In this document: piece after piece, positions 107 to 56,124 of the stretch
How the letters are laid out: each line of letters starts with the position of its first letter
How positions within the stretch are numbered: position 1 is the first letter of the stretch
Source: Megascapheus bottae
Lineage: Eukaryota; Chordata; Mammalia; Rodentia; Geomyidae
Direction of reading: 5' to 3'
Length of the DNA: 64,000 nt
Assembly: GCA_024803745.1 (NCBI GenBank)
Contig: JANJXV010000024.1
Coordinates: 21,861,927-21,925,926 of the forward strand
Translations under genes and position numbers: made by a program
Notes under the pieces: generated by a model
Database searches by the model: none
Told to the model about the DNA's origin: nothing
What the model saw: only the letters and a program-made list of their open reading frames with translations

Positions 107-146
107 CAACGGCCCCCAAAAAGGTGATGAGAAGGAAATTCTTCAT
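107..146 (-). CDS. Trypsinogen-family gene, first coding exon only (partial, runs off left edge)
   Basis: Read on the minus strand, an ATG at 146-144 opens 13 codons plus one base (MKNFLLITFLGAV, then G), followed at once by a consensus donor gtaagt at 106-101. This hydrophobic start is a secretory signal peptide and closely parallels the first exons of the two complete trypsinogens in this window. The exon length of exactly 40 nt and the phase after the first base of codon 14 are identical to those genes and to mammalian trypsinogens generally. The remaining four exons would lie beyond position 1. There is no clear TATAAA about 57 bp upstream of the ATG, where both complete genes have one, so this copy may be weakly expressed, use another promoter, or be a pseudogene. 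The identification rests on one short exon, hence moderate confidence. Confidence 0.62.
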
Positions 147-6036: not shown

Positions 6037-6042
6037 TTTATT
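6037..6042 (-). terminator. Polyadenylation signal AATAAA of trypsinogen gene A
   Basis: AATAAA on the minus strand lies 69 bp downstream of the stop codon at 6113-6111, giving the short 3' UTR usual for trypsinogen genes. Confidence 0.85.
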
Positions 6043-6110: not shown

Positions 6111-9100
6111 TCAGTTGTCATCAATGGTCTGCTGAATCCAGTCCAGGTAGTTGCACACCTTGGCATAAACCCCAGGTTTTCCTTTCAGGGCACAGCCACT
6201 GCCCCAGGAGACCACACCCTGGAGCTCTTCATTGCACACCACGGGGCCACCGGAATCATACTGCAGAGGAAGGAAAAGACAATCAGAGCTCTTCATGTCC
6301 AGAAGGGAAGTGAGTCTTAAGGTGTTTCCCCACATCCTTTAGTCATCTCGACAGGATACCAACACTCCCCAAACCAATCGTCCATCTTCTCATTGCCCAT
6401 GTATAATTCCTTCCGTTTGTCCTTCCTCTTTCTGTTACAAGCCAACAGAGCTGACCATACATGATAATTGTGAGATTTAATCCATGGGCTCTGAACATTT
6501 CTCAAGGAACCATTCCACAAGGATTCACAGCTTATCACCCTCCATGGCTCTTTACCCTTTCTATATGCTCGAATCAGCATATAGAAAACCTATGTCACCG
6601 CTTAGACTCAGGTACAGGGAAAGGTAGACAGCCTTCAGCATTTCAGAAATGAAAGTTAGCATGGATAAAGAGAGTCATGGTGATTGATGAAACTCACCTG
6701 GCAAGAGTCCTTCCCACCTTCCAGGAAACCCAGACAGAACATGTTGTTGGTGATTAGGCCTCGGTAGGCCTTGTGGCAAACAGAGTCAGACAGCACAGGA
6801 GCATCCAGACATTGCAGTAGTGAAGGCAATTTGACTATTGAACACAAGCAAATAGTGGAAGGGCAGGATTCCCACTCTCCTCCTCCTGTTCATTATTCCT
6901 CTCTTTCCAAATGGCCAATGAGTGATCATTTGGAAGAACCTTTTTTGACCAAAGAGTTCTTCAAATAGCACTCAACTTTTTGCTAGTTGATTACTGGTTT
7001 TAGTTTTCCCACTTACAATGTCCAAATGTTTTATTCTCAACCGAGTAGTTATCTAATCTATCTATTGATCTATGTATCTATCTATCTACCTACTACCACC
7101 TAACTCGGGCAGCATGAAACTCACAGCCTCCCTTTTATTTCCCTTCTCTAGTCTTAGTTCTCTACTTACCATACAGTTCAGTTATATGTGTTGTATTGTT
7201 CTTCTACTAGTGAATTTTCACTGTCTCCTACATGACCTCAGCATAGGGATCTTGGTTGTTTCCATTAACAGCCTACTCTCAGCCTAACTTTCCTTTCCAG
7301 CACCCTCCTACTTCCTACTGTATTTCAGATGATACCTACAGCCATTACTCAAAGTGTTGCCCCAGCCAGACACAAGGCACCAAGTACCAGCAGATGGACA
7401 GGATCTTGGCAGAGAGACAGTGGACACGTAAGAATTGATGGTGGCTGGTGACTTCAGCTTAATGAGCATGATGTCATTGTCAGCGGTGCCTTCATTGTAT
7501 TCAGGGTGTGGGATGATCTTGGCTGCATCAATGAATTGTTCACCACCCTCGATGTCACGAATGCTGTGTTCTCCCAAACGTACTTCGAGTTGGCTGAGTT
7601 TAAGGATTCAAAGATTCCTTAGGGGGATACATTGTGGGTCTCTTTCCTTTCTTCAACCCTCAATCATCAAGATGAATAAAATCACTATGCTCAATCATTC
7701 AGCGACACAGGTAATTATTCATTTCTGTAGTATCATGCACTACCATGCATGATGCAGGTTAGAGAATTACTACGGTAAGTATCATTGTTAATGAGGATTC
7801 CCATGCCTCTCTCCGTTTAGAATTCCAAGGCAAGGAATGGGAAGATAACTACTCTGCAAAACAACTGTAGATAGGAAAGTAGGCACTGGTTATCAATCAG
7901 TACCTGACTCTTTTTTGGGGTATGATCACCCAGTCTTACGTGAATGACTCAAGGTTCAGAACAATGAGTTTTTGTATGCATATATTTATGTATATGCATG
8001 TACACACATACATGTTTGCCTATACAATGTGTATATACATATACATATGTGTACATGTATTCATATATGTATATATCACATATACATGAGGTATTTTTAT
8101 GCTAGGAACAATAGGAATCTGTATATTTCATTCACCATACATAACTCAGCATTATTTTCCCCAAATGTACTTTGTGGGGCCAGAGGAAAAGCTGATCTTA
8201 TAGCATAGAAATATGAATATCAGTTACTTACGGAGAGTAGCAGTGAGCTGCAGACAAGACCCACTGGTCAGTGATGAGGGAGCCCCCACATATATGTACA
8301 CCAGTGTTCAGGGACACCTGGTAGGGGAGGGAATTCTTTGCACAGGTGTAGCCCCCTATTATCTTGTCATCTTCCTCGGTTGGGAGAGCAGCTGTCAGAG
8401 AAAAGTTTAGAGCTCTTTTATAAGCAGATGCCTCATAGAATTTCATGCATGATGATGTTTTTGCAGGACAAGAGACATGAGAATGTTAATTTCTCTAATA
8501 TAATCAGAAAATGTTCATTTCAATATAATTGAAGACAATTATTTATCATACTAATCCTTGAACTTGTTCCCTTCCTATTGAATTATAAATAAAATATATT
8601 TATAAAATGTTCTGTTTATATTTACTATTTATGTACCATTTTACATACAACACAAGCTCTCAAACACTAACTTAAAAAGATCAGAAATTATTTAGGTAAT
8701 AAATATACTACAATGCCATAACTTGAACTCTGTTCAACAGCCAGGCAAACAGGTGGGAGTTCTGTAGCAATCCTGGTGATGGTTCTGGTGTTATTGGTGG
8801 TGTGTTGCTTCAGAATAGTGTCTCCAAAAGGTAACAAAATGGAGGCTTTTCACAGCTACCTCAGAATATGATAGCTTTGAACCTTTCTCTACTTTCTCTC
8901 TTTGATGCTAATGTTCATTAAATTGTTTGAGTAGACATTTTAAGACTTCTCTCCTGCAAATTCCCCTTATTCATCCCAGTTACCTTTCTTTGATGAATTC
9001 TCTGTTTGAGGTCTGGCCCACATACCTGACAATATTCCTTACAGCTCCCGAAGCCTTTAACTATAGTATATGAGACCTGCTTTTCTAATGATTTATGAGA

Positions 9101-9976
9101 TTAGTTTTAAATATTAGGAAAAATGTTTTCATCATGTGTACATACTGATCAGTGGACTGTATTTGTTCATCGTGGGAAAAAAATACTAAGTTTTAGTAGC
9201 AAAACTCTAGAAGTCTTTAAAATTGGTCATTTGTATTTTACTCAGAATTGAGTTACCTTTATTCCAGAGAGATTTTCACTGGTGAAGTTGTCTTAACATA
9301 CAATTTAAACCTAGTGTAGTGACACATGCCTGTAATCTAGCCAAGCTACTGGGAAGTAGGGGCAAGAGGATTGAAAGCTTGGAGCCAGTCCTGGTAAAGT
9401 TAGTAAGCTCCCATCTCTAAGTGAAAAATGAAAACAATGGGTCTGAAAGCTTGATTTAAGTAGTAGAGTATCTGTCAGTCAAGTAGGAAGACCTTGGCTC
9501 AATTTTCAATAGGATTAAGAAATGTTTCTAATATTTCCGAATCTCTATCCTAAGTAAAAAGCCTTTCACTACTCAAAAGACAAAGGCTTTGTGTATCCCA
9601 GTTTTTGAAGCTTACATACTACTTGTCATTATTAACTGCAATTATTATAGAGGTCAAAAACAAGCACTTCTTAGATGTTGACTATACTTTCTTTTTCTTT
9701 TCTAATATAGAATATCCCTGAAACTTCAGGATTTTATACTATCTGTTGACCACTTCTAGTCACCATGAACTTTCTCAGGGAAATCAGAACTATTTATTTA
9801 TGAAAGTATATTTCAAGGGTTTAAGCTTCTTTCCTGTGGGCGTAAGTTCAAAAATCATTGTTATTTTCTTCAAGCACAAAGCCAAAACTTACATCCAATT
9901 CAAATCTCTACCGACACATTCATTAGAGAGACTCACCAACCAGTCCCAGGAAAGCAAGGAAGATGAAGTTCTTCAT
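6111..9976 (-). CDS. Trypsinogen gene A, divergent, with Tyr at the oxyanion-hole glycine position
   Basis: Secreted serine protease precursor of the pancreatic trypsin family, cleaving after Lys/Arg. Five coding exons on the minus strand: 9976-9937, 8391-8232, 7593-7340, 6834-6698 and 6260-6111 (40, 160, 254, 137 and 150 nt), all with GT-AG introns and matching phases. They give 246 residues, with a signal peptide [14 protein letters not shown], activation site TEEDDK (18-23) and mature start IIGG at 24. His63, Asp107 and Ser200 form the triad, Asp194 sets Lys/Arg specificity, and all 12 cysteines are present. Oddities: exon 4 ends DSCQ and exon 5 starts YDSGGP, so the usual Gly198 (chymotrypsin 193) is Tyr. 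The autolysis Arg122 is also Tyr (INSYVST), and two of the four acidic activation residues are Glu. Human mesotrypsin has Arg at 198 and resists inhibitors. The open frame is intact throughout, so I infer a specialised functional trypsin. Confidence 0.93.
7972..8095. repeat. AT/CA-rich low-complexity tract in intron 1-2 region of trypsinogen A
   Basis: Alternating tatgcatatatttatg / tacacacatacatg sequence, purine-pyrimidine alternating, inside the second intron (7594-8231). No coding content. Confidence 0.8.
9305..9530 (+). repeat. Old degraded SINE in intron 1 of trypsinogen A
   Basis: B1-like words (cacatgcctgtaatctagccaagctactgggaagtaggggcaagaggattg, broken by substitutions) followed by an ID-like portion (gtagtagagtatctgtcagtcaagta). 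No target duplication is visible any longer. Confidence 0.6.
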
Positions 9977-10033: not shown

Positions 10034-10039
10034 TTTATA
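10034..10039 (-). promoter_or_regulatory. TATA box of trypsinogen gene A
   Basis: TATAAA on the minus strand, 58 bp upstream of the ATG. Gene B has the same hexamer 56 bp upstream of its ATG, supporting function in both. Confidence 0.85.
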
Positions 10040-10064: not shown

Positions 10065-10082
10065 GCCAGAAAGGTGATTTCA
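10065..10082 (-). promoter_or_regulatory. 18-bp promoter block shared with trypsinogen B
   Basis: The 18-bp plus-strand word gccagaaaggtgatttca is identical at 21719-21736 upstream of trypsinogen B, 26 and 36 bp beyond the respective TATA boxes. On the gene strand it contains TCACCTTTC, close to the CACCTG half of the PTF1 type of acinar enhancer element. The binding factor is inference; the conservation is seen directly. Confidence 0.6.
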
Positions 10083-13725: not shown

Positions 13726-16700
13726 GCATTAGTGTTTTTAACATGAGTGTATGTTAATGCCATGTAGTATTAAAACAGGTACTGATATATAGAAATGGAA
13801 TACTTCTGTGCTTTATTGTCTTGTTGTGGCACTACATAACATTAAAATACAGATTGATCTGACACAATAAGAGGACACAAAACTTTAATATACCCCACTC
13901 GCTAAATATTAAATATTAAATAAAACTTCAAAACTAATGACACTATACATATACAGAATATTTCATCTCCTAGCCATAGAATACATTCTTCTAAGCAACA
14001 CTGGGAAATTTCTCCAAACTAGATGACATTTTAGCACATGAACCAAGTCTTAACATGTAGAAGATAGTTGAAACAGCAACCTGTTTTCTGTCAGACCACA
14101 ATAGGACAAAACTAAATGCTGAATAATTTCCTTTGGAATTCTCTGTCACTATAGAAATAAATAATGAGATAAAGAAATGAAAAACAAATTCCTGGAATGA
14201 AAACACAAATTACCAGAAAGGTTGGGATTCAGAAAGGACAGTATAAAGAGGAAACTTTATAGCTCTGCGGATAAAGATCAAAAGATAAGACAGATCCAAT
14301 TTAAAAAAATCACCTTGGTGTTATTTGTTTTATTGCATTCATCCAAATGTTTAAAACAATCAATATGCTTGATGAGCTCTCTATTTTATTTTCATATAGA
14401 ATTTGGAATTTCCAAAGAAATTGGAATAGTCTAATAATAATAATGATTCCTTAGAGCCAAATTTATATAAGTGCCTTATGGAAATTCAGTCCAAAAAAGC
14501 ATGATATTCTAAGGTACCATCATTTCTGTGCATGTTAACCAGAGATGGCATGCATATTTAGCTATACACAGACTTTTTCTTAAGGATTTTTTTCCTGATG
14601 GAAATAACTTTACAAACAATTGATTTCTCTTTGCATTTTCTTTGGTGAAAATTGGTTTCATGATAATGGCAATGAAGCTTGGGACTGCCTATCAAACATT
14701 AGGCCCTGAGTTCAAAACCAGGTACTGCCAAGTGATTTGTTATTCTTCAGACAAGAGACAGAGATAACAGAAGACAATAGAAACATGGCAGCAAGAACAC
14801 ATGGCCTGCCATCTTTTACCACTGGGAGTTGCTCTGATTTCTAGTCTTGCATGTACCTCAGTTCCCTTGTCAGGTCTGCAAAACATCTTTGCTTGATGGG
14901 CAGTGGTGCCCATAGTAAGTGTGGTTTGAAGGTGATCATACAGGGAGCACAACAGTACATCCTCAGGGAATCCTAAACTCATGCGGGTCAGGGGTGTTGT
15001 CTATGGCACATGGGAACACTGGAGCAGGGCAGATACAGGAGATACGTGGTGATGTCTCTAGTGGGCATGAGCTTGCATCTCATCACTCAAAGCTACTCCA
15101 AGACCCACTCACCACCCTATGTGGGGACCCTCCTGAAAACCTCCTCCCAGGAGTCTTATCCGTGTCCTTCGGTTAGGCTCAGCAAAACTTCACCCTGACC
15201 TTATCTGAAAGTGCACTGTCTCCCCAGCTGCAAGGACACTATACAGCCTGCTACAGTAAAATAATAAATACAGATATAAAGGAAAACATGTCAATTTATT
15301 GATGAGGGTCATACCTTTTTAGTACAGCAAGTACATTTGACTTCCAATCAAAAAGATTTGGTTATAAGCCCCCCAAAATGTAATTAGCTACTAACACACT
15401 CCAAAGGAACTCTCCTCCTCCATCATATAACGTCATAACCCCCACACTCCCAGCCCTTGTTTCTCTCACCTGCTCCGTGTGAGGTGGGGTCCCTCCTCAA
15501 CCACAATGAAAGCCTGTTCTGGAGGCTTCTGCCTTCTTGCTCTCCTCTCCTCTGCTTGATCTTCCCTAACACTCATGACTCAGTTTCCTAACACTAGAAA
15601 GCATAGCAAGGTGAAACCTTGAAACATTCTAGAAACCTGTCATTGACATGGGTTTTTTTTTTTTTTTACAAGAGTTTCCAATGAAATGAAGAATACCACA
15701 AAGAGAAAATTCTGTCACAGGAATACCAGTATACTAGGGATAAGGAATACTTCATGTTTTGTTGTAGCTCCTTATAAACTAGGTGAATAACTTTCAGAAA
15801 TTGATTTTAATTTTCTCCTATTTAGTATCAGTATATGTACTGAGTTACGAGGTGTGATGTGATCTGCCATAAAATATTTCACCTACTGTGCAGTGTACAA
15901 AAAACTTAAAATATCTGATGCTAAGAAATTACCAAATACTATGTATGAAATTCTAAAGAGATTTTCTGAATGTGTCCATAAATTGACTTAATTCTCTGTC
16001 TGCACTCTCTCTTAGCAGCAAATTCCAAGGGAAAGTTCTTGGAGATGTGTCTCACATGATAGATTGCCATCCTGGAGCAAAACAAGCTAAGAGATAGTGC
16101 CCAGGACTGAATTTAAGTCCCAGTTTTGGAACACACGTGCACAGAAAAGTTAAAACTTACAACCAAACATATATATTTTCTATTTAAAAGGCAAAAATTT
16201 GCCTAAGTCACTAAGTGTGGATGTATTACACATAGCTCTCAAATGTGCAGCCTGAAAGTTGACAGCTCCAAGATTCTAGCTCTAAATCATTTTTTTTGCC
16301 ACAATTAAAACCCAGGAGTTAAAACCTTGTCTGAGTGTAACAGTTCTGATCTCATAGCTTTATTTTAAGAGAGGTTCCTTAGAAATTGACCTTATTACTC
16401 CTGATCCTTTTGCCTGTCTGACATTCTCTAATCCTTTGGCTTCAGAGAAATCCCATTGGATTATTTAAAATGTTAACTACATTTCTTTAGTGTTACTTAG
16501 GCTAAATCAGGCTTCAGATATGTCAGGCAAGCCCTCTGCCACTTGAGTAACAGCCCCATCCCTCTTGCTGTGTATTTTGTCTTGAGGCAGGTTCTTTTCC
16601 AGGCGGGGATGGTCTTGAGACCAACTCTTCAACAACCCACCTGTGACCAGGACTGGATATGCTGGTACATGTCTCTAATCACAACAGACAGGAGGATTGA

Positions 16701-17037: not shown

Positions 17038-21622
<4,585 letters not shown>

Positions 21623-21683: not shown

Positions 21684-21718
21684 CTCCACATTTATCATTC
21701 ACTCCCATGGCTACAGGT

Positions 21719-21736
21719 GCCAGAAAGGTGATTTCA
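21719..21736 (-). promoter_or_regulatory. 18-bp promoter block shared with trypsinogen A
   Basis: Identical to 10065-10082. Here it overlaps an E-box caggtg immediately to its left (21715-21720) and is followed by ctggaaac, so both halves of a PTF1-like bipartite site may be present. That reading is inference. Confidence 0.6.
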
Positions 21737-28400: not shown

Positions 28401-31400
28401 AAGAAACAGACATGTAGATGGAGATGAAGTGAAGCTGGAGATTGACTCAGAGCATCATAATTGGAAGAAATAGGGAAAGACACCTCACATTCCTTTTTCA
28501 TGACAATTTTCTCCCTAATGTACTTGTTTTCCCAACACAATGTTGATCACATAGGAACTCAGGAAATTGTATTAGCTTTTTGTAAACCTCTTACATTCCA
28601 TCATTCCAGCTTCTTCAATACACCTGCCTTGAATTTATGAAATGCATTTTCTCAAATATGTTTTCCATTATGATTATAAAATTGCCATTTGGGAAGCAGA
28701 GAAAGAATATTTAATTTGGGGGGGTTGTAAATATTAGTGATGGAAGTTAGGATGTCACACTTTCTAGGCAGGTGCTTTACCACTTGAGCCAGAAACCCAG
28801 CCCCTTCTTCCACTGGATAATTTCAGTAGGGGCTTGCTTTATGCCAGAGCTGGCCTGAGCTGTAATCCTTTTACTTGCTCTTGCCTGAGGCATATGCCCT
28901 TGGGCCCAGCCATTGTGCTTCCCCAGTAACTAGCATAGTAAATATGAGCCGCCATATTGTGCCTCTGATTGAGATGGAGTCTTGAGTACTTTTATTCCTT
29001 GGGCTGGCTTTGCTTTATTATCCCTTGACTTTAATCTAACGACTTGACTTTTATTTCAAGAAGAATGCATAGATCCTATGAGAGACAAGGCTGTAAGAAA
29101 ACCTGCCCTCTGTTCTGCATGGCCTTGGAACCATACAGTTAACTTCATTTACCTACTCTATTCCTTTGGAGTGACAGCTATCAAAGGAAGGATTTGAGCA
29201 AATTCATCAGCGAATGGAGGTTCATTAAGAGAAAATTCTGTTGAATGAATCTTATTTTCTTTCCAGTGAGCTCAACATGATGAAGAATTAAGACAAAACT
29301 TGGAACTCAATTGACCTTGTTTTCAGTACAGAATGTGGTGATATTTCCATGATATTTTTCCATTAAAGGTGGAAAAATGCCTCTCTTTTAACTTCTTGTC
29401 AATAGTCAGCACTGATATTACAGGTTTCCAGAAATACGCCAAAGGAGAAAAGAATAATACAAGTACTACACAATAAAGTGAGGTATGTGCCCAGAGAAAC
29501 AACCTGAAGTTTAATTGAATGGCTGGGTGTTAGTGCAATACAAAAGATTGAGGTTCAAATCACAAAAGAAGGTTAACCTTCAAAAAGAAAGAGAGAGATT
29601 CGCTGAAGAGGTGAACAGAGGTTCAAGATCATAAAGACATTTTAAAAATTTATTGTACAGGTGATGTACGAGGAGTTACAGTTACATGAGTCAATGACTT
29701 TATTTCCTTTTGAGCAGTGCCCTCTCCTCCCTCATTCTCTCCCAGGTTTCCCTTCCCAGCTTCCCTCCCTGGGAAATTGCATAGTTCATTTCCAACATAG
29801 TATCTAGTGAGTATCACTGAGGAATTGGCTCGACCTTTGCTCTACCATTTCTGTGCTTCCCAACCCCCTCCCCAAATCAGATAAACATATACAAGAAAAA
29901 GAGTACAGAAATCATAAGCAGCAACAGGAGGGAATAAAAGAGAAAAGGAAAGAAGAAAGGAATAAGGAACCACATACAGTATAATAAAAAGTCTCTTGCT
30001 TCCATGCCTTGGAGTTCATTTCAATAAGCATGATTTTATATGCTCATAGGCACATAGCTATTGAACCAGAGGGCATTTCTCCTTAGCCCCTGTATCTCAA
30101 TGCCTGGACCTTCTCTCCCCAGGTGATGAGTCAGCCTATGGGTGACAGTGAATTCTACCCTGTGAACTTGACTGACACACGCTTATGAACTGCAGTAGTG
30201 AGTGGCTAACAGAACCCACTGTGTGCTGTGGGGTTCCCCTCTCCGCACCCCCATCAGGGATGTCCAGTGACAGCTGTAGATGAGGCACTGCTTGTTACAG
30301 AGGAAGCAGCTGACATTCTTGTCGTCATCGTTGCATCGGTTATGGATTAAGCTCCATGAGAAGAGAAGAAAGGGAAATGATAGCCAAAGAACTGGGTATT
30401 GTGCTTTGTCCTCAAGCTTTGGCTAGGAAGTGGATTTTAAAATCTCCACCATGACCCTTCAATGGGACCATGAAAATATTCTATGATCTTAGATGGTTAT
30501 TTTTCCATGTGAAATCCACTCTAAAAACCCATTGTCTGAGCATAGGATACCCATTCACATAGGAAATAATTGTAGAACTGTACAGTATAAATGAAGTAAT
30601 TTTAACAGAAAGTTAAAATTATCTTAAATTCACACAAGATAAAGCTCTTGTTTCTATGTCATTTCTCTTCTCTTTTGTTGCCCTTTGGTTAATCTCAGAT
30701 TGTTACAGTATCTGACTTTGTTACCTGGCATATTGTATATACATTCATTTGTTTATTTGAAATCGGAAAGGGAAGGGGGAAAACAAGATGATCGGGAGGG
30801 GTGGGAGGAGGGACAAAAACATGAGAAGGGGTATCAATGTGTGAGAAGTAATGCACCTATTATCTAGTGAATATAACTCTAACCCCTCTATACATTACAA
30901 TAAAAATACCTTAAATTCTGCTGACTGAAAATAACTACTGCAAAAATGCAGCAGAGAGGAAAAGAGGAAAGGAAGGAGAAAGAGAAATATGCAACAACAA
31001 AAAAAACCTTCCTAAGAGAGGAGGCTCTAAATCTAAGGGTTGTGCTAAAAATCAGAGGTATTCTAAGGCCAAAAGAAAAATATCCCAGGATTCTTTATCC
31101 AACATAAAGGGAGGAATGCACTAACAAAGCAAGGGAGGGAGGGACATCCTTCTGTTGCCTGACTGTAGACAAAGAACATTTTCAAACTCCATGGAAGCCT
31201 TGTGTAGATGTACCATTTCTGTAGCTTTCACTTGGGTTCTTACCTTAGTATAAAGGCAAGAAGCTAGAAGAGGAAGATGAGAAGGGTAAGGAGAGCCCCC
31301 ATTGCTTGGGTTACCTATGTTAGATGTAGGGTGACTCCATCTTGATTCGCTTGGGATGCTTGTGGTATATGAATCGTGTCCTGAGACAAAGCCACTCTTT

Positions 31401-54040: not shown

Positions 54041-54505
54041 ATGATACACAAACTCTTCTATGTTCTCCATTTTCTCCTTGGAGTAGGTGAGTTCTGGGTT
54101 TTGTGAGAAATCTGTGCCATGAGTTTACGAAGTCCCATCCCTAAACCAACGAGCCAGAGACATGTGCTTATTCCTAAAGTATAGATTTCATCATATGCCT
54201 CCCATCCAATAGGATTCCTGGATGCTGAGATCACTCAGACTCCCAGATACCGGATTACAAACACAGGAAAGAAGCTGGTCCTAGAGTGCTCTCAGGATAT
54301 GAACCATTTCTCCATGTTCTGGTATCGACAAGATGCAGGACGAGGGCTGACGCTCATCCATTACTCAACTGGTGTCGGCAGCACTGTCAAAGGGGACCTT
54401 GCAGAAGGGTACAACGTCTCCCGAGACACAATGGATCGGTTCCCCCTGACACTGCCATCAGCCAGCCCCAGCCAAACCTCCATGTACCTCTGCAGCAGCA
54501 GCAGT
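54041..54505 (+). CDS. T-cell receptor beta variable segment, TRBV26/TRBV6-like, intact
   Basis: Leader exon 54041-54086 (MIHKLFYVLHFLLGV, donor gtgagt) and V exon 54213-54505 after acceptor ccaatag, phases matching. The V domain reads AEITQTPRYRITNTGKKLVLE.., with Cys in LECSQDM, Trp in MFWYRQD, HYSTGVGSTVKGDLAEGY in FR2-CDR2, NVSRDTMDRFPLT and QTSMYLC. The GSTVKGD..EGY.VS.DT..FPLTL.SAS..QTSMYL pattern is closest by eye to TRBV26, with TRBV6/25/27 also related, so I leave the symbol blank. The segment ends CSSSS instead of the usual CASS. The frame is open and the conserved residues are present, with an N-glycosylation site at NVS. The promoter decamer was not recognised. Confidence 0.93.
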
Positions 54506-54544
54506 CACAGCACTGCACCGACAGCTGTTCTCTGCACAAAAAGG
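54506..54544 (+). other. Recombination signal sequence (23-RSS) of the TRBV26/6-like gene
   Basis: Heptamer CACAGCA (54506-54512), 23-bp spacer, nonamer acaaaaagg (54536-54544), 7 of 9 to consensus. Confidence 0.88.
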
Positions 54545-56124
54545 GCGGACACACCTTCACCTTCCCCAGCCCCTGCCCCAACCATGAGACAAAACATGTG
54601 GTCCCAGCAGAGGGACCTTAACTGGTAGACAAAGAGGTGAGGGAGGGGAAGGAGAGACAGAGAGAGGAGACAGAGTCATTGTACTTTACTCAGCATAGTA
54701 AAGGAGAGGGATAGTATTTCTCATCATGAAACCAGTACTTCCTTCCTTTTTTCCACACAGAACAATTCCAGAATTTTTCTGAGCTGTTTTAACATCCCTG
54801 AGGAATCTGTGATTCTCCAGGTTTCATATAATTTCCTAATTTATCACATTGAGTTATTTGTCTGATATTCCTGCCCCCCCCCATCTATTTACCAAACTGG
54901 CCAAATCTACTGAAATTTGATATAATTGCTGAATAATAAAATGGATGGTGACCAAAATTCCCCAAGTCATGATACCTATGAAGCTTCTGACTACCTTTAC
55001 CAGCCCTGGGGATTTCTTTAAAGTGTTTGTTTACCTAATTCTTTCCTCCTGAAATTGGTCCTTCTTTTTTTAGATCAACCTGGCTCATTGTTTTGCTGAA
55101 TTTGAGGTTTCTGTATCTCTTATTGAACTCTTCTCTCAGTCTCAATGTTTTATGTGTTGACTTTTGTTTGTGCCTTTGGTTACTTTTTAATAACGAAACT
55201 GAGATTGGTCTGTATAGAATATAGTCACTCATTTGTACGGGACTCCCATTTTATGTTATTTATTTACTTACTTTGATTTGTTAAACTGTAGCTATTGAGA
55301 ATAAAATGTCCATATAATCCCAGCTACACAAGAGATGGAGTGCAATGGCTCAGGACACAAACTAGCCTTGAGTAAAAACACCAGATCCCATCTGAAAAAG
55401 GGCTGAGATGTGGGTCAAGTTGTAGAGCATATGGAAGGTCCAGAGTTCAAAACCTCAGGAGAAGAAAAAAGAAATAGTGAATCTATTTTCTCACAGAGTG
55501 GCTTGACTTTCCATTACTTTCATAAATCTCTTGATAAATAGAATTTCTTCATTTTTATAAAGTCAAACTTATAGTATGTTTCCTATTTACAGTTAATGCC
55601 CTTTGCATCTGAAGGCATTTTTATCTTCACCAAGTTACGAATTGTTTATTACTTACTTTCATACTGCAGTTTGGTAGCCCATTCTTGGTCAGTTCTTGAT
55701 GCCACAAGAAAATGCTCCACTATAATCCCATCCTTCTTATCCTACCACACCTCATAGTTGTATTACCAGGATTATTTGTGCATCAGGAACTCTCCTTTCC
55801 TTTTTTGTTTGTGGGCCAGGGAGGGACGTAGCCTGTGGGTGTGGAGGAAGAAGATGGCTGAAGAGAAGTCTGCCACAAACTTCCCTGGCTGGGAGGACGT
55901 GAGAACCCTCCTTGATTTCTCTCATGAGAAATCATGCATCTTTTTTGGAATTTGTATCTCTAAGACACACTGTTTATTCTCACATTTAGCATTTCTCACC
56001 ATTTCTGCTAACACTCTTAGCAATGCTAATTGCAGACTGGTAGACCTTTCGTTACTGCTAATTGCAGAATATTAAAAACCTTGTTACATCCAGTTGCAGA
56101 TTCTTAGAAAAAGAAATTCCATAG

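What the first reader, a model, noticed from the sequence alone, without database searches (positions are those of the whole stretch)
6111..6260. Trypsinogen with Tyr in place of the oxyanion-hole glycine (G193Y, precursor position 198)
Exon 4 ends ..KDSCQ and exon 5 begins YDSGGP, so the near-invariant Gly before Asp-Ser is Tyr. The catalytic triad, specificity Asp, all 12 cysteines, splice sites, TATA box and poly(A) signal are intact, which argues against a decaying gene. In human mesotrypsin the same position is Arg and is known to confer resistance to, and digestion of, protein inhibitors. A Tyr here suggests an independent route to an inhibitor-resistant or substrate-restricted trypsin. 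Gly193 supplies a backbone NH, so activity may persist with any side chain, while bulky inhibitors would clash.
Basis: partly seen in the sequence, partly recalled or inferred. Interest (0 to 1): 0.75.

Follow-up and report, generated by a model that had tools for sequence, protein, structure and literature searches.

The report
Rodent trypsin V lacking glycine 193
This kangaroo-rat-like rodent carries an intact digestive-enzyme (trypsin) gene with a bulky tyrosine where trypsins almost always have a glycine; it belongs to a lineage already named trypsin V in rats, and related trypsins in several other rodent groups also lack that glycine, so the oddity is old and probably functional rather than an error.

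Summary
On the minus strand, 9976-6111, lies an intact five-exon trypsinogen (246 aa). Exon 5 begins with TAT (Tyr193), and no nearby acceptor restores Gly. It is not private to this animal: the closest relative, Dipodomys merriami (85% identity), and rat trypsin V-A also carry Tyr193. In a tree built without column 193 they share a 9-row clade (97/90), all non-Gly.

That clade lies in a 34-row rodent clade (100/98) in which 18 rows lack Gly193 (Cys 8, Tyr 5, Met 2, Asn, Leu, Asp) and 16 keep it. One origin of the non-Gly rows is not rejected (p 0.397), but the best tree needs two changes. The 12 cysteines, His57, Asp189 and Ser195 are kept in 18 of 18. dN/dS against the Gly193 neighbour gene is 0.24.

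Best reading: an active acidic trypsin whose residue 193 hinders canonical inhibitors, as in mesotrypsin (Arg193) and TSV-PA (Phe193). Resistance was not tested. The gene is a new member of a known kind; the widespread rodent loss of Gly193 is the part worth pursuing.

The parts
6111..6260 (-). Exon 5 of trypsinogen gene A; first codon TAT (6260-6258) = Tyr193, followed by Asp194-Ser195-Gly-Gly-Pro; stop TGA at 6113-6111
6698..6834 (-). Exon 4 of gene A, ending ..GGKDSCQ (Asp189, Gln192)
7340..7593 (-). Exon 3 of gene A (Asp102; Tyr122, where 65 of the other 66 rows of the tree have Arg, Lys or Gln and one has His)
8232..8391 (-). Exon 2 of gene A (activation peptide [12 protein letters not shown], His57)
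9937..9976 (-). Exon 1 of gene A (signal peptide [13 protein letters not shown])
10034..10039 (-). TATAAA of gene A, aligned with that of gene B; just upstream A lacks 10 bp with a CACCTG E-box that B has
6037..6042 (-). AATAAA poly(A) signal of gene A
17038..21622 (-). Trypsinogen gene B, comparison gene with Gly193 (exons 21622-21583, 19422-19260, 18528-18275, 17768-17632, 17187-17038; 247 aa, activation peptide [10 protein letters not shown])
   Evidence: 94% to Dipodomys merriami cationic trypsin-3

Best explanation
Gene A is the castorimorph (heteromyid-like) ortholog of rat trypsin V: a secreted acidic trypsinogen with the catalytic triad and the Lys/Arg-specificity Asp in place (shown in sequence). 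It belongs to rodent trypsins that gave up Gly193 early, most economically Gly (GGT) to Cys (TGT) to Tyr (TAT) (inferred from codons and states). Inferred mechanism: the backbone NH of 193 still serves the oxyanion hole, while the side chain projects into the S1'-S2' side of the cleft. There it clashes with the rigid loop of canonical inhibitors (SPINK, Kunitz and plant inhibitors in the gut), so the enzyme is inhibitor-resistant and narrower in substrate choice, a rodent counterpart of mesotrypsin reached independently.
For: Intact gene, splice sites, 12 Cys and catalytic residues. Tyr193 shared with Dipodomys merriami and rat trypsin V-A. With column 193 left out, three supported subclades are wholly non-Gly: the trypsin V clade with gene A (9 of 9, 97/90), a squirrel clade (6 of 6 Cys, 100/99) and a hystricomorph clade (3 of 3, Cys/Asn, 97/87); outside the 34-row rodent clade 31 of 33 rows have Gly. 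Holding all 18 non-Gly rodent rows together is not rejected (p-AU 0.397), nor holding the 16 Gly rows of the same clade together (0.373). In a quick 129-row tree 7 Gly/non-Gly changes suffice; six non-Gly tips lie outside the rodent group, which leaves one for it. Core kept in the 18 rows: 12 cysteine columns, H57, D189 and S195 in 18 of 18, D102 in 17 of 18. A-B dN/dS 0.24, bootstrap 0.17-0.36. Parallels in print: mesotrypsin Arg193 (PMC6158287, PMC8609519, PMC8532158) and TSV-PA Phe193 (PMC11511063, PMC3123349), passages seen. Gene A also lacks Tyr39 (Val) and has a basic residue at 74 (Arg); loss of Tyr39 matters in mesotrypsin by the title of a paper cited in PMC8532158, position 74 is recalled. 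Rat trypsin V-A transcript rises 145-fold in control rat pancreas at birth (PMC9569808 table passage).
Against: No inhibition or activity data exist here. The 18-row set was drawn by the residue itself, so its being non-Gly is by definition, and 193 varies inside it (Cys, Tyr, Met, Leu, Asn, Asp), which fits relaxed constraint as well as selection. Changes at 39 and 97 are also common in the Gly193 rows of the same clade, so they do not track 193. The best 67-row tree does not hold the 18 rows as one clade: squirrel Gly and Cys rows sit together weakly (74/57) and two Gly/non-Gly changes are needed in rodents. dN/dS is a single A-B average and cannot single out A's branch. The promoter of A lacks an E-box present in B. 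The structure model was too poor to place the side chain.
Confidence: 0.5

Rival explanations
1. Relaxed constraint: a redundant trypsin paralog in a family with many copies lost Gly193, is catalytically weak, and the site now drifts; no inhibitor-related gain.
For: 193 changes 5 times among the 18 non-Gly rows. Activation peptides of the muroid members are altered (EDNDDR, EENDER), and the Chionomys row has Glu instead of Lys/Arg at the cleavage site. Asp102 is Asn in four Marmota rows. No Mus row of this clade among the rows listed in three searches, though clusters at 90% identity may hide members. E-box missing in A relative to B.
Against: Apart from 193, the 18 non-Gly rows evolve much like the 16 Gly rows of the same clade (1.64 and 1.48 changes per column; 93 and 102 unchanged columns of 223). 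All 12 cysteines and Ser195 kept in 18 of 18. Cys to Gly is always one base, yet no Gly revertant is evident, unless the squirrel Gly rows are such. dN/dS 0.24.
Confidence: 0.3
2. Restricted-specificity regulatory protease: Tyr193 narrows prime-side specificity so that the enzyme cuts few targets, perhaps also outside the pancreas (immune or inflamed tissue), rather than resisting inhibitors.
For: Rat trypsin V-A is listed with a 94.6-fold rise in acute renal allograft rejection (PMC2262896 Table 5, passage). Altered activation peptide without the usual poly-Asp.
Against: The rejection signal could come from T-cell transcripts of the TRB locus in which these genes lie (inference). 145-fold rise in rat pancreas at birth fits a digestive enzyme (PMC9569808).
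Confidence: 0.12
3. Artefact: sequencing or assembly error, or a hidden splice form restoring Gly.
For: Only one assembly of this animal was seen.
Against: The codon differs from gene B's by two adjacent bases, TAT for GGT. Dipodomys merriami has Tyr193 too. No acceptor within -60 to +40 restores Gly.
Confidence: 0.01

Closest known systems
Rat trypsin V-A / V-B (P0021 is the Rattus rattus V-A record; TRYA_RAT and P32822 are the database names seen in papers)
   Same: Tyr193 in the same QYDSGGP context (P0021); shared [15 protein letters not shown] and [29 protein letters not shown] stretches; one supported clade
   Different: 76% identity; rat has FPTEDNDDR|IVGG and Ser39, gene A has [12 protein letters not shown] and Val39
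Human mesotrypsin (PRSS3, Arg193)
   Same: Trypsin paralog with a bulky residue at 193; predicted inhibitor resistance
   Different: Arg not Tyr, charged not aromatic; human PRSS3 itself was not placed in the tree, independence is inferred from the rodent clade; resistance measured there, not here
Snake-venom plasminogen activator TSV-PA (Phe193)
   Same: A trypsin-fold protease with an aromatic residue at 193, credited with inhibitor resistance (PMC11511063, PMC3123349 passages)
   Different: Venom subfamily with narrow substrate choice; not compared by sequence here
Rodent trypsin-4 and squirrel/hystricomorph trypsins with Gly193 (16 rows)
   Same: Nearest paralogs: with the 18 non-Gly rows they form one clade, 100/98
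   Different: They keep Gly193, the criterion by which they were set apart

Membership tests
Trypsin (Pfam PF00089, peptidase S1A) | Profile match over the whole domain; His-Asp-Ser triad; Asp189 | tested here: met
   254.4 bits, profile 1-220 of 220; H, D, S, D present
Trypsin (Pfam PF00089, peptidase S1A) | Gly193 of the oxyanion hole (usual, not required by the profile) | tested here: not met
   Tyr, TAT codon; the profile match and triad still place it in the family
Rodent trypsin V ortholog group | Falls in a supported clade with rat trypsin V-A with column 193 left out of the tree | tested here: met
   9-row clade 97/90; order inside it relative to the Acomys/Chionomys rows is weak (63/8, 84/16)
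Rodent trypsin V ortholog group | Syntenic position in the TRB locus | tested here: inconclusive
   Four TRBV-like segments lie in the window by a motif scan; gene order of rat was not compared
Mesotrypsin (PRSS3) as a functional kind | Bulky side chain at 193 | tested here: met
   Tyr193
Mesotrypsin (PRSS3) as a functional kind | Arg193 exactly | tested here: not met
   Tyr; so it is not mesotrypsin, at most works like it
Mesotrypsin (PRSS3) as a functional kind | Resistance to and cleavage of protein inhibitors | not testable with these tools
   needs recombinant enzyme

The most novel reading that the evidence does not exclude
Early in rodent evolution a trypsin paralog lost the oxyanion-hole glycine once, through a Cys193 form with an odd, thirteenth cysteine that squirrels, a porcupine and degu still carry. 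It then diversified at that one site (Tyr, Met, Leu, Asn, Asp) under selection from inhibitors in the diet or in the pancreas: an independently evolved mesotrypsin-like lineage spread across rodents, of which no mouse member was seen.
Probability: 0.35. Interest if true: 0.65.

Novelty: new member of a known kind. Interest (0 to 1): 0.42.

Why it matters
Gly193 is a textbook fixed residue of trypsins. Rodent trypsins without it in three suborders, beside Gly193 paralogs in the same suborders, are a natural experiment on how far the oxyanion hole tolerates side chains and on how inhibitor resistance evolves. It also bears on rodent pancreatitis models: rat and hamster records have such an enzyme, and no mouse member was seen in the rows listed. 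If inhibitor-resistant, these trypsins would escape the SPINK brake.

Tried and rejected
Structure: the AlphaFold run on relatives (P0007 first, 19 rows) gave mean pLDDT 66.1 and under 50 at residues 190-199, so no fold search was run and nothing is concluded from it. The mesotrypsin positions 39, 74, 97 and 193: 39 and 97 do not separate the non-Gly from the Gly rows of the clade, so the idea of a full set of parallel changes was dropped. dN/dS on the branch could not be run: no coding DNA of relatives was available. Whole-genome copy number could not be run: the genome search was unreachable in all ten attempts. Literature: of the ten searches, nine (the tenth was on mesotrypsin) bore on trypsin V or residue 193; judged from the listed rows and the passages opened, none showed a paper on Tyr193 or Cys193 in rodent trypsins. 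The lists are capped and the library is open-licence PMC only, so this does not show absence from print. The original rat trypsin V cDNA paper (Kang and others, about 1992) is recalled, not seen, and so is the claim that Rattus norvegicus V-A has Tyr; the record seen is Rattus rattus (P0021). The comparison of 5 changes at column 193 in the non-Gly rows with 0 in the Gly rows is not used as evidence, because the two sets were drawn by that residue.

Full report
Observation. The window looks like rodent TRB-locus DNA: two complete trypsinogen genes on the minus strand and four TRBV-like segments on the plus strand, the latter found by a motif scan only. Gene A (9976-6111) splices with GT-AG introns into exons of 40/160/254/137/150 nt and encodes 246 aa with 12 cysteines. 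Exon 5 opens with TAT GAT TCC GGT GGC, so residue 193 is Tyr. Gene B has GGT at the same codon. No acceptor within -60 to +40 restores Gly. The triad and Asp189 are present, and the Pfam trypsin profile matches end to end at 254 bits. The species is not identified; gene B is 94% and gene A 85% identical to Dipodomys merriami proteins, which points to Heteromyidae or near kin.

Relatives. A protein search (best 120 listed of 3690) gave as the most identical hit a Dipodomys merriami protein at 85%, with Tyr193. The list also holds rat trypsin V-A (Tyr), hamster (Tyr), Acomys (Tyr), a Neotoma fusion record (Tyr), voles (Met), Apodemus (Leu), Chionomys (Asp), squirrels, degu and a porcupine protein (Cys) and a second porcupine protein (Asn). 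A profile search and a search with rat trypsin V-A added 20 more rows in all. Over the 140 proteins held, the CxxDSGGP motif has Gly in 108 (plus 3 records with two Gly motifs), Cys 11, Tyr 5, Met 3, Asn 2, Leu 2, Glu 2, Arg 2, Asp 1, and no such motif in 1. These are the best-ranked rows of each search, not a random sample of trypsins.

Tree. With column 193 removed, a 67-row tree puts gene A in a 9-row clade with Dipodomys, the muroid trypsin V proteins and the Acomys and Chionomys rows (97/90); all nine lack Gly. Order inside it is weak. Squirrel Cys rows (6, 100/99) and hystricomorph Cys/Asn rows (3, 97/87) are two further wholly non-Gly subclades. All three lie in a 34-row rodent clade (100/98) with 16 rows that keep Gly (squirrel, hystricomorph and muroid trypsin-4). 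Outside it 31 of 33 rows have Gly. I call the 18 non-Gly rows P1 and the 16 Gly rows P2; the split is made by the residue, so it is not itself evidence. Each set has squirrel, hystricomorph and mouse-related members, which is what one early rodent duplication would give. The best tree does not show it exactly: squirrel P1 and P2 rows sit together weakly (74/57), and Gly/non-Gly then needs two changes within rodents (4 in all with elephant and Myotis). Holding P1 or P2 together is not rejected (p-AU 0.397 and 0.373); with the divergent Acomys and Chionomys rows left out of P1, p is 0.201. None of these p values shows a clade. In a quick 129-row tree 7 Gly/non-Gly changes suffice; six non-Gly tips lie elsewhere (elephant Glu, Myotis Asn, a tenrec gene with a broken triad, aye-aye Arg, sugar glider Arg, Perognathus Glu), which leaves one for P1.

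Constraint. Among the P1 rows column 193 changes 5 times; 28 of 223 mature columns, itself included, change as often or more. P1 and P2 are otherwise alike in tree length (2.86 for 18 rows, 2.31 for 16) and in unchanged columns (93 and 102 of 223). In P1 the 12 cysteines, His57, Asp189 and Ser195 are kept in 18 of 18 and Asp102 in 17 of 18; three Marmota rows not in the tree also have Asn102. So the site was released or is under changing selection while the enzyme core is largely held. A and B differ with dN/dS 0.24 (0.17-0.36), an average over both branches. The 8 Cys193 rows in the tree have 13 cysteines in the mature protein, the extra one being residue 193 itself. The two vole Met rows also have 13, the extra one at precursor position 131. 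Gly GGT to Cys TGT to Tyr TAT is a path of single-base steps that also fits the states on the tree; only the TAT and GGT codons of this window were seen as DNA.

Other features. P1 activation peptides depart from poly-Asp: DGD(D/E)DK in squirrels and hystricomorphs, EEDDK/R in window A and Dipodomys, E(D/E)N(D/N)(D/E)R in the five muroid trypsin V rows; Acomys has NGNNDK and Chionomys NDSVNE, without a basic residue. The mature protein of A carries net charge -7, that of B +5; 17 of 18 P1 rows are negative. Gene A has Tyr122; the other 66 rows have Arg, Lys or Gln except one His. Its proximal promoter lacks a 10-bp CACCTG-containing stretch found in B.

Mechanism. Shown: sequence, clade, retained core. 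Inferred: activity, inhibitor resistance, placement of the side chain. Published parallels are mesotrypsin Arg193, where a steric clash with Arg17 of an APPI variant lowers affinity (PMC6158287, passage) and where BPTI is bound with KD 10^-5 M against 10^-14 M for bovine trypsin (PMC8532158, passage), and TSV-PA Phe193 (PMC11511063 and PMC3123349, passages). Expression of the rat ortholog: 145-fold up in control pancreas at birth against day E20 (PMC9569808, table passage) and 94.6-fold up in renal rejection (PMC2262896, table passage). The latter may reflect TRB-locus transcription in T cells rather than the enzyme (inference).

Verdict. The gene is a real trypsin V ortholog, hence a new member of a known kind. 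The broader pattern, trypsins without Gly193 in squirrels, hystricomorphs and mouse-related rodents, was not found described in the papers searched, which is weak evidence because the library is partial.

Noticed in passing
window 107-146, minus strand: Exon 1 (MKNFLLITFLGAV, then GTAAGT) of a third trypsinogen gene whose other exons would lie off the left edge of the window.
   Followed up: partly
window 30198-30380 (minus) and 54504-54653 (minus): Weak, degenerate matches to trypsinogen exons 1-2 and exon 3 (E 0.003 and 0.27), possibly relics of further copies.
   Followed up: no
P0124 (aye-aye), P0135 (sugar glider), P0133 (Perognathus), P0059 (elephant), P0072 (Myotis): Single trypsins with Arg, Arg, Glu, Glu and Asn at 193 and intact triads, scattered on the tree: repeated separate losses of Gly193 in mammals, two of them to the mesotrypsin residue Arg.
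   Followed up: partly
P0131 (Lemmus lemmus): By eye, a record whose first half resembles Gly193 trypsin-3 and whose second half resembles trypsin V, with Leu193: gene conversion, chimera or annotation error.
   Followed up: no
P0031 (Mus musculus Q9D7Y7): Asn instead of Ile at position 16, the new N-terminus after activation (DDDDDK|NVGG); such a trypsin might not form the active conformation.
   Followed up: no
P0015, P0041, P0044, P0050 (Marmota): Cys193 rows in which catalytic Asp102 is Asn: these copies may be impaired.
   Followed up: no
window 10065-10066 against 21710-21719, minus strand: Promoter of gene A lacks a 10-bp CACCTG-containing stretch present in gene B; may alter acinar expression.
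   Followed up: partly
window 15313-15382, plus strand: Rfam tRNA match at 33.9 bits that ARAGORN does not call; perhaps a tRNA-derived SINE.
   Followed up: no
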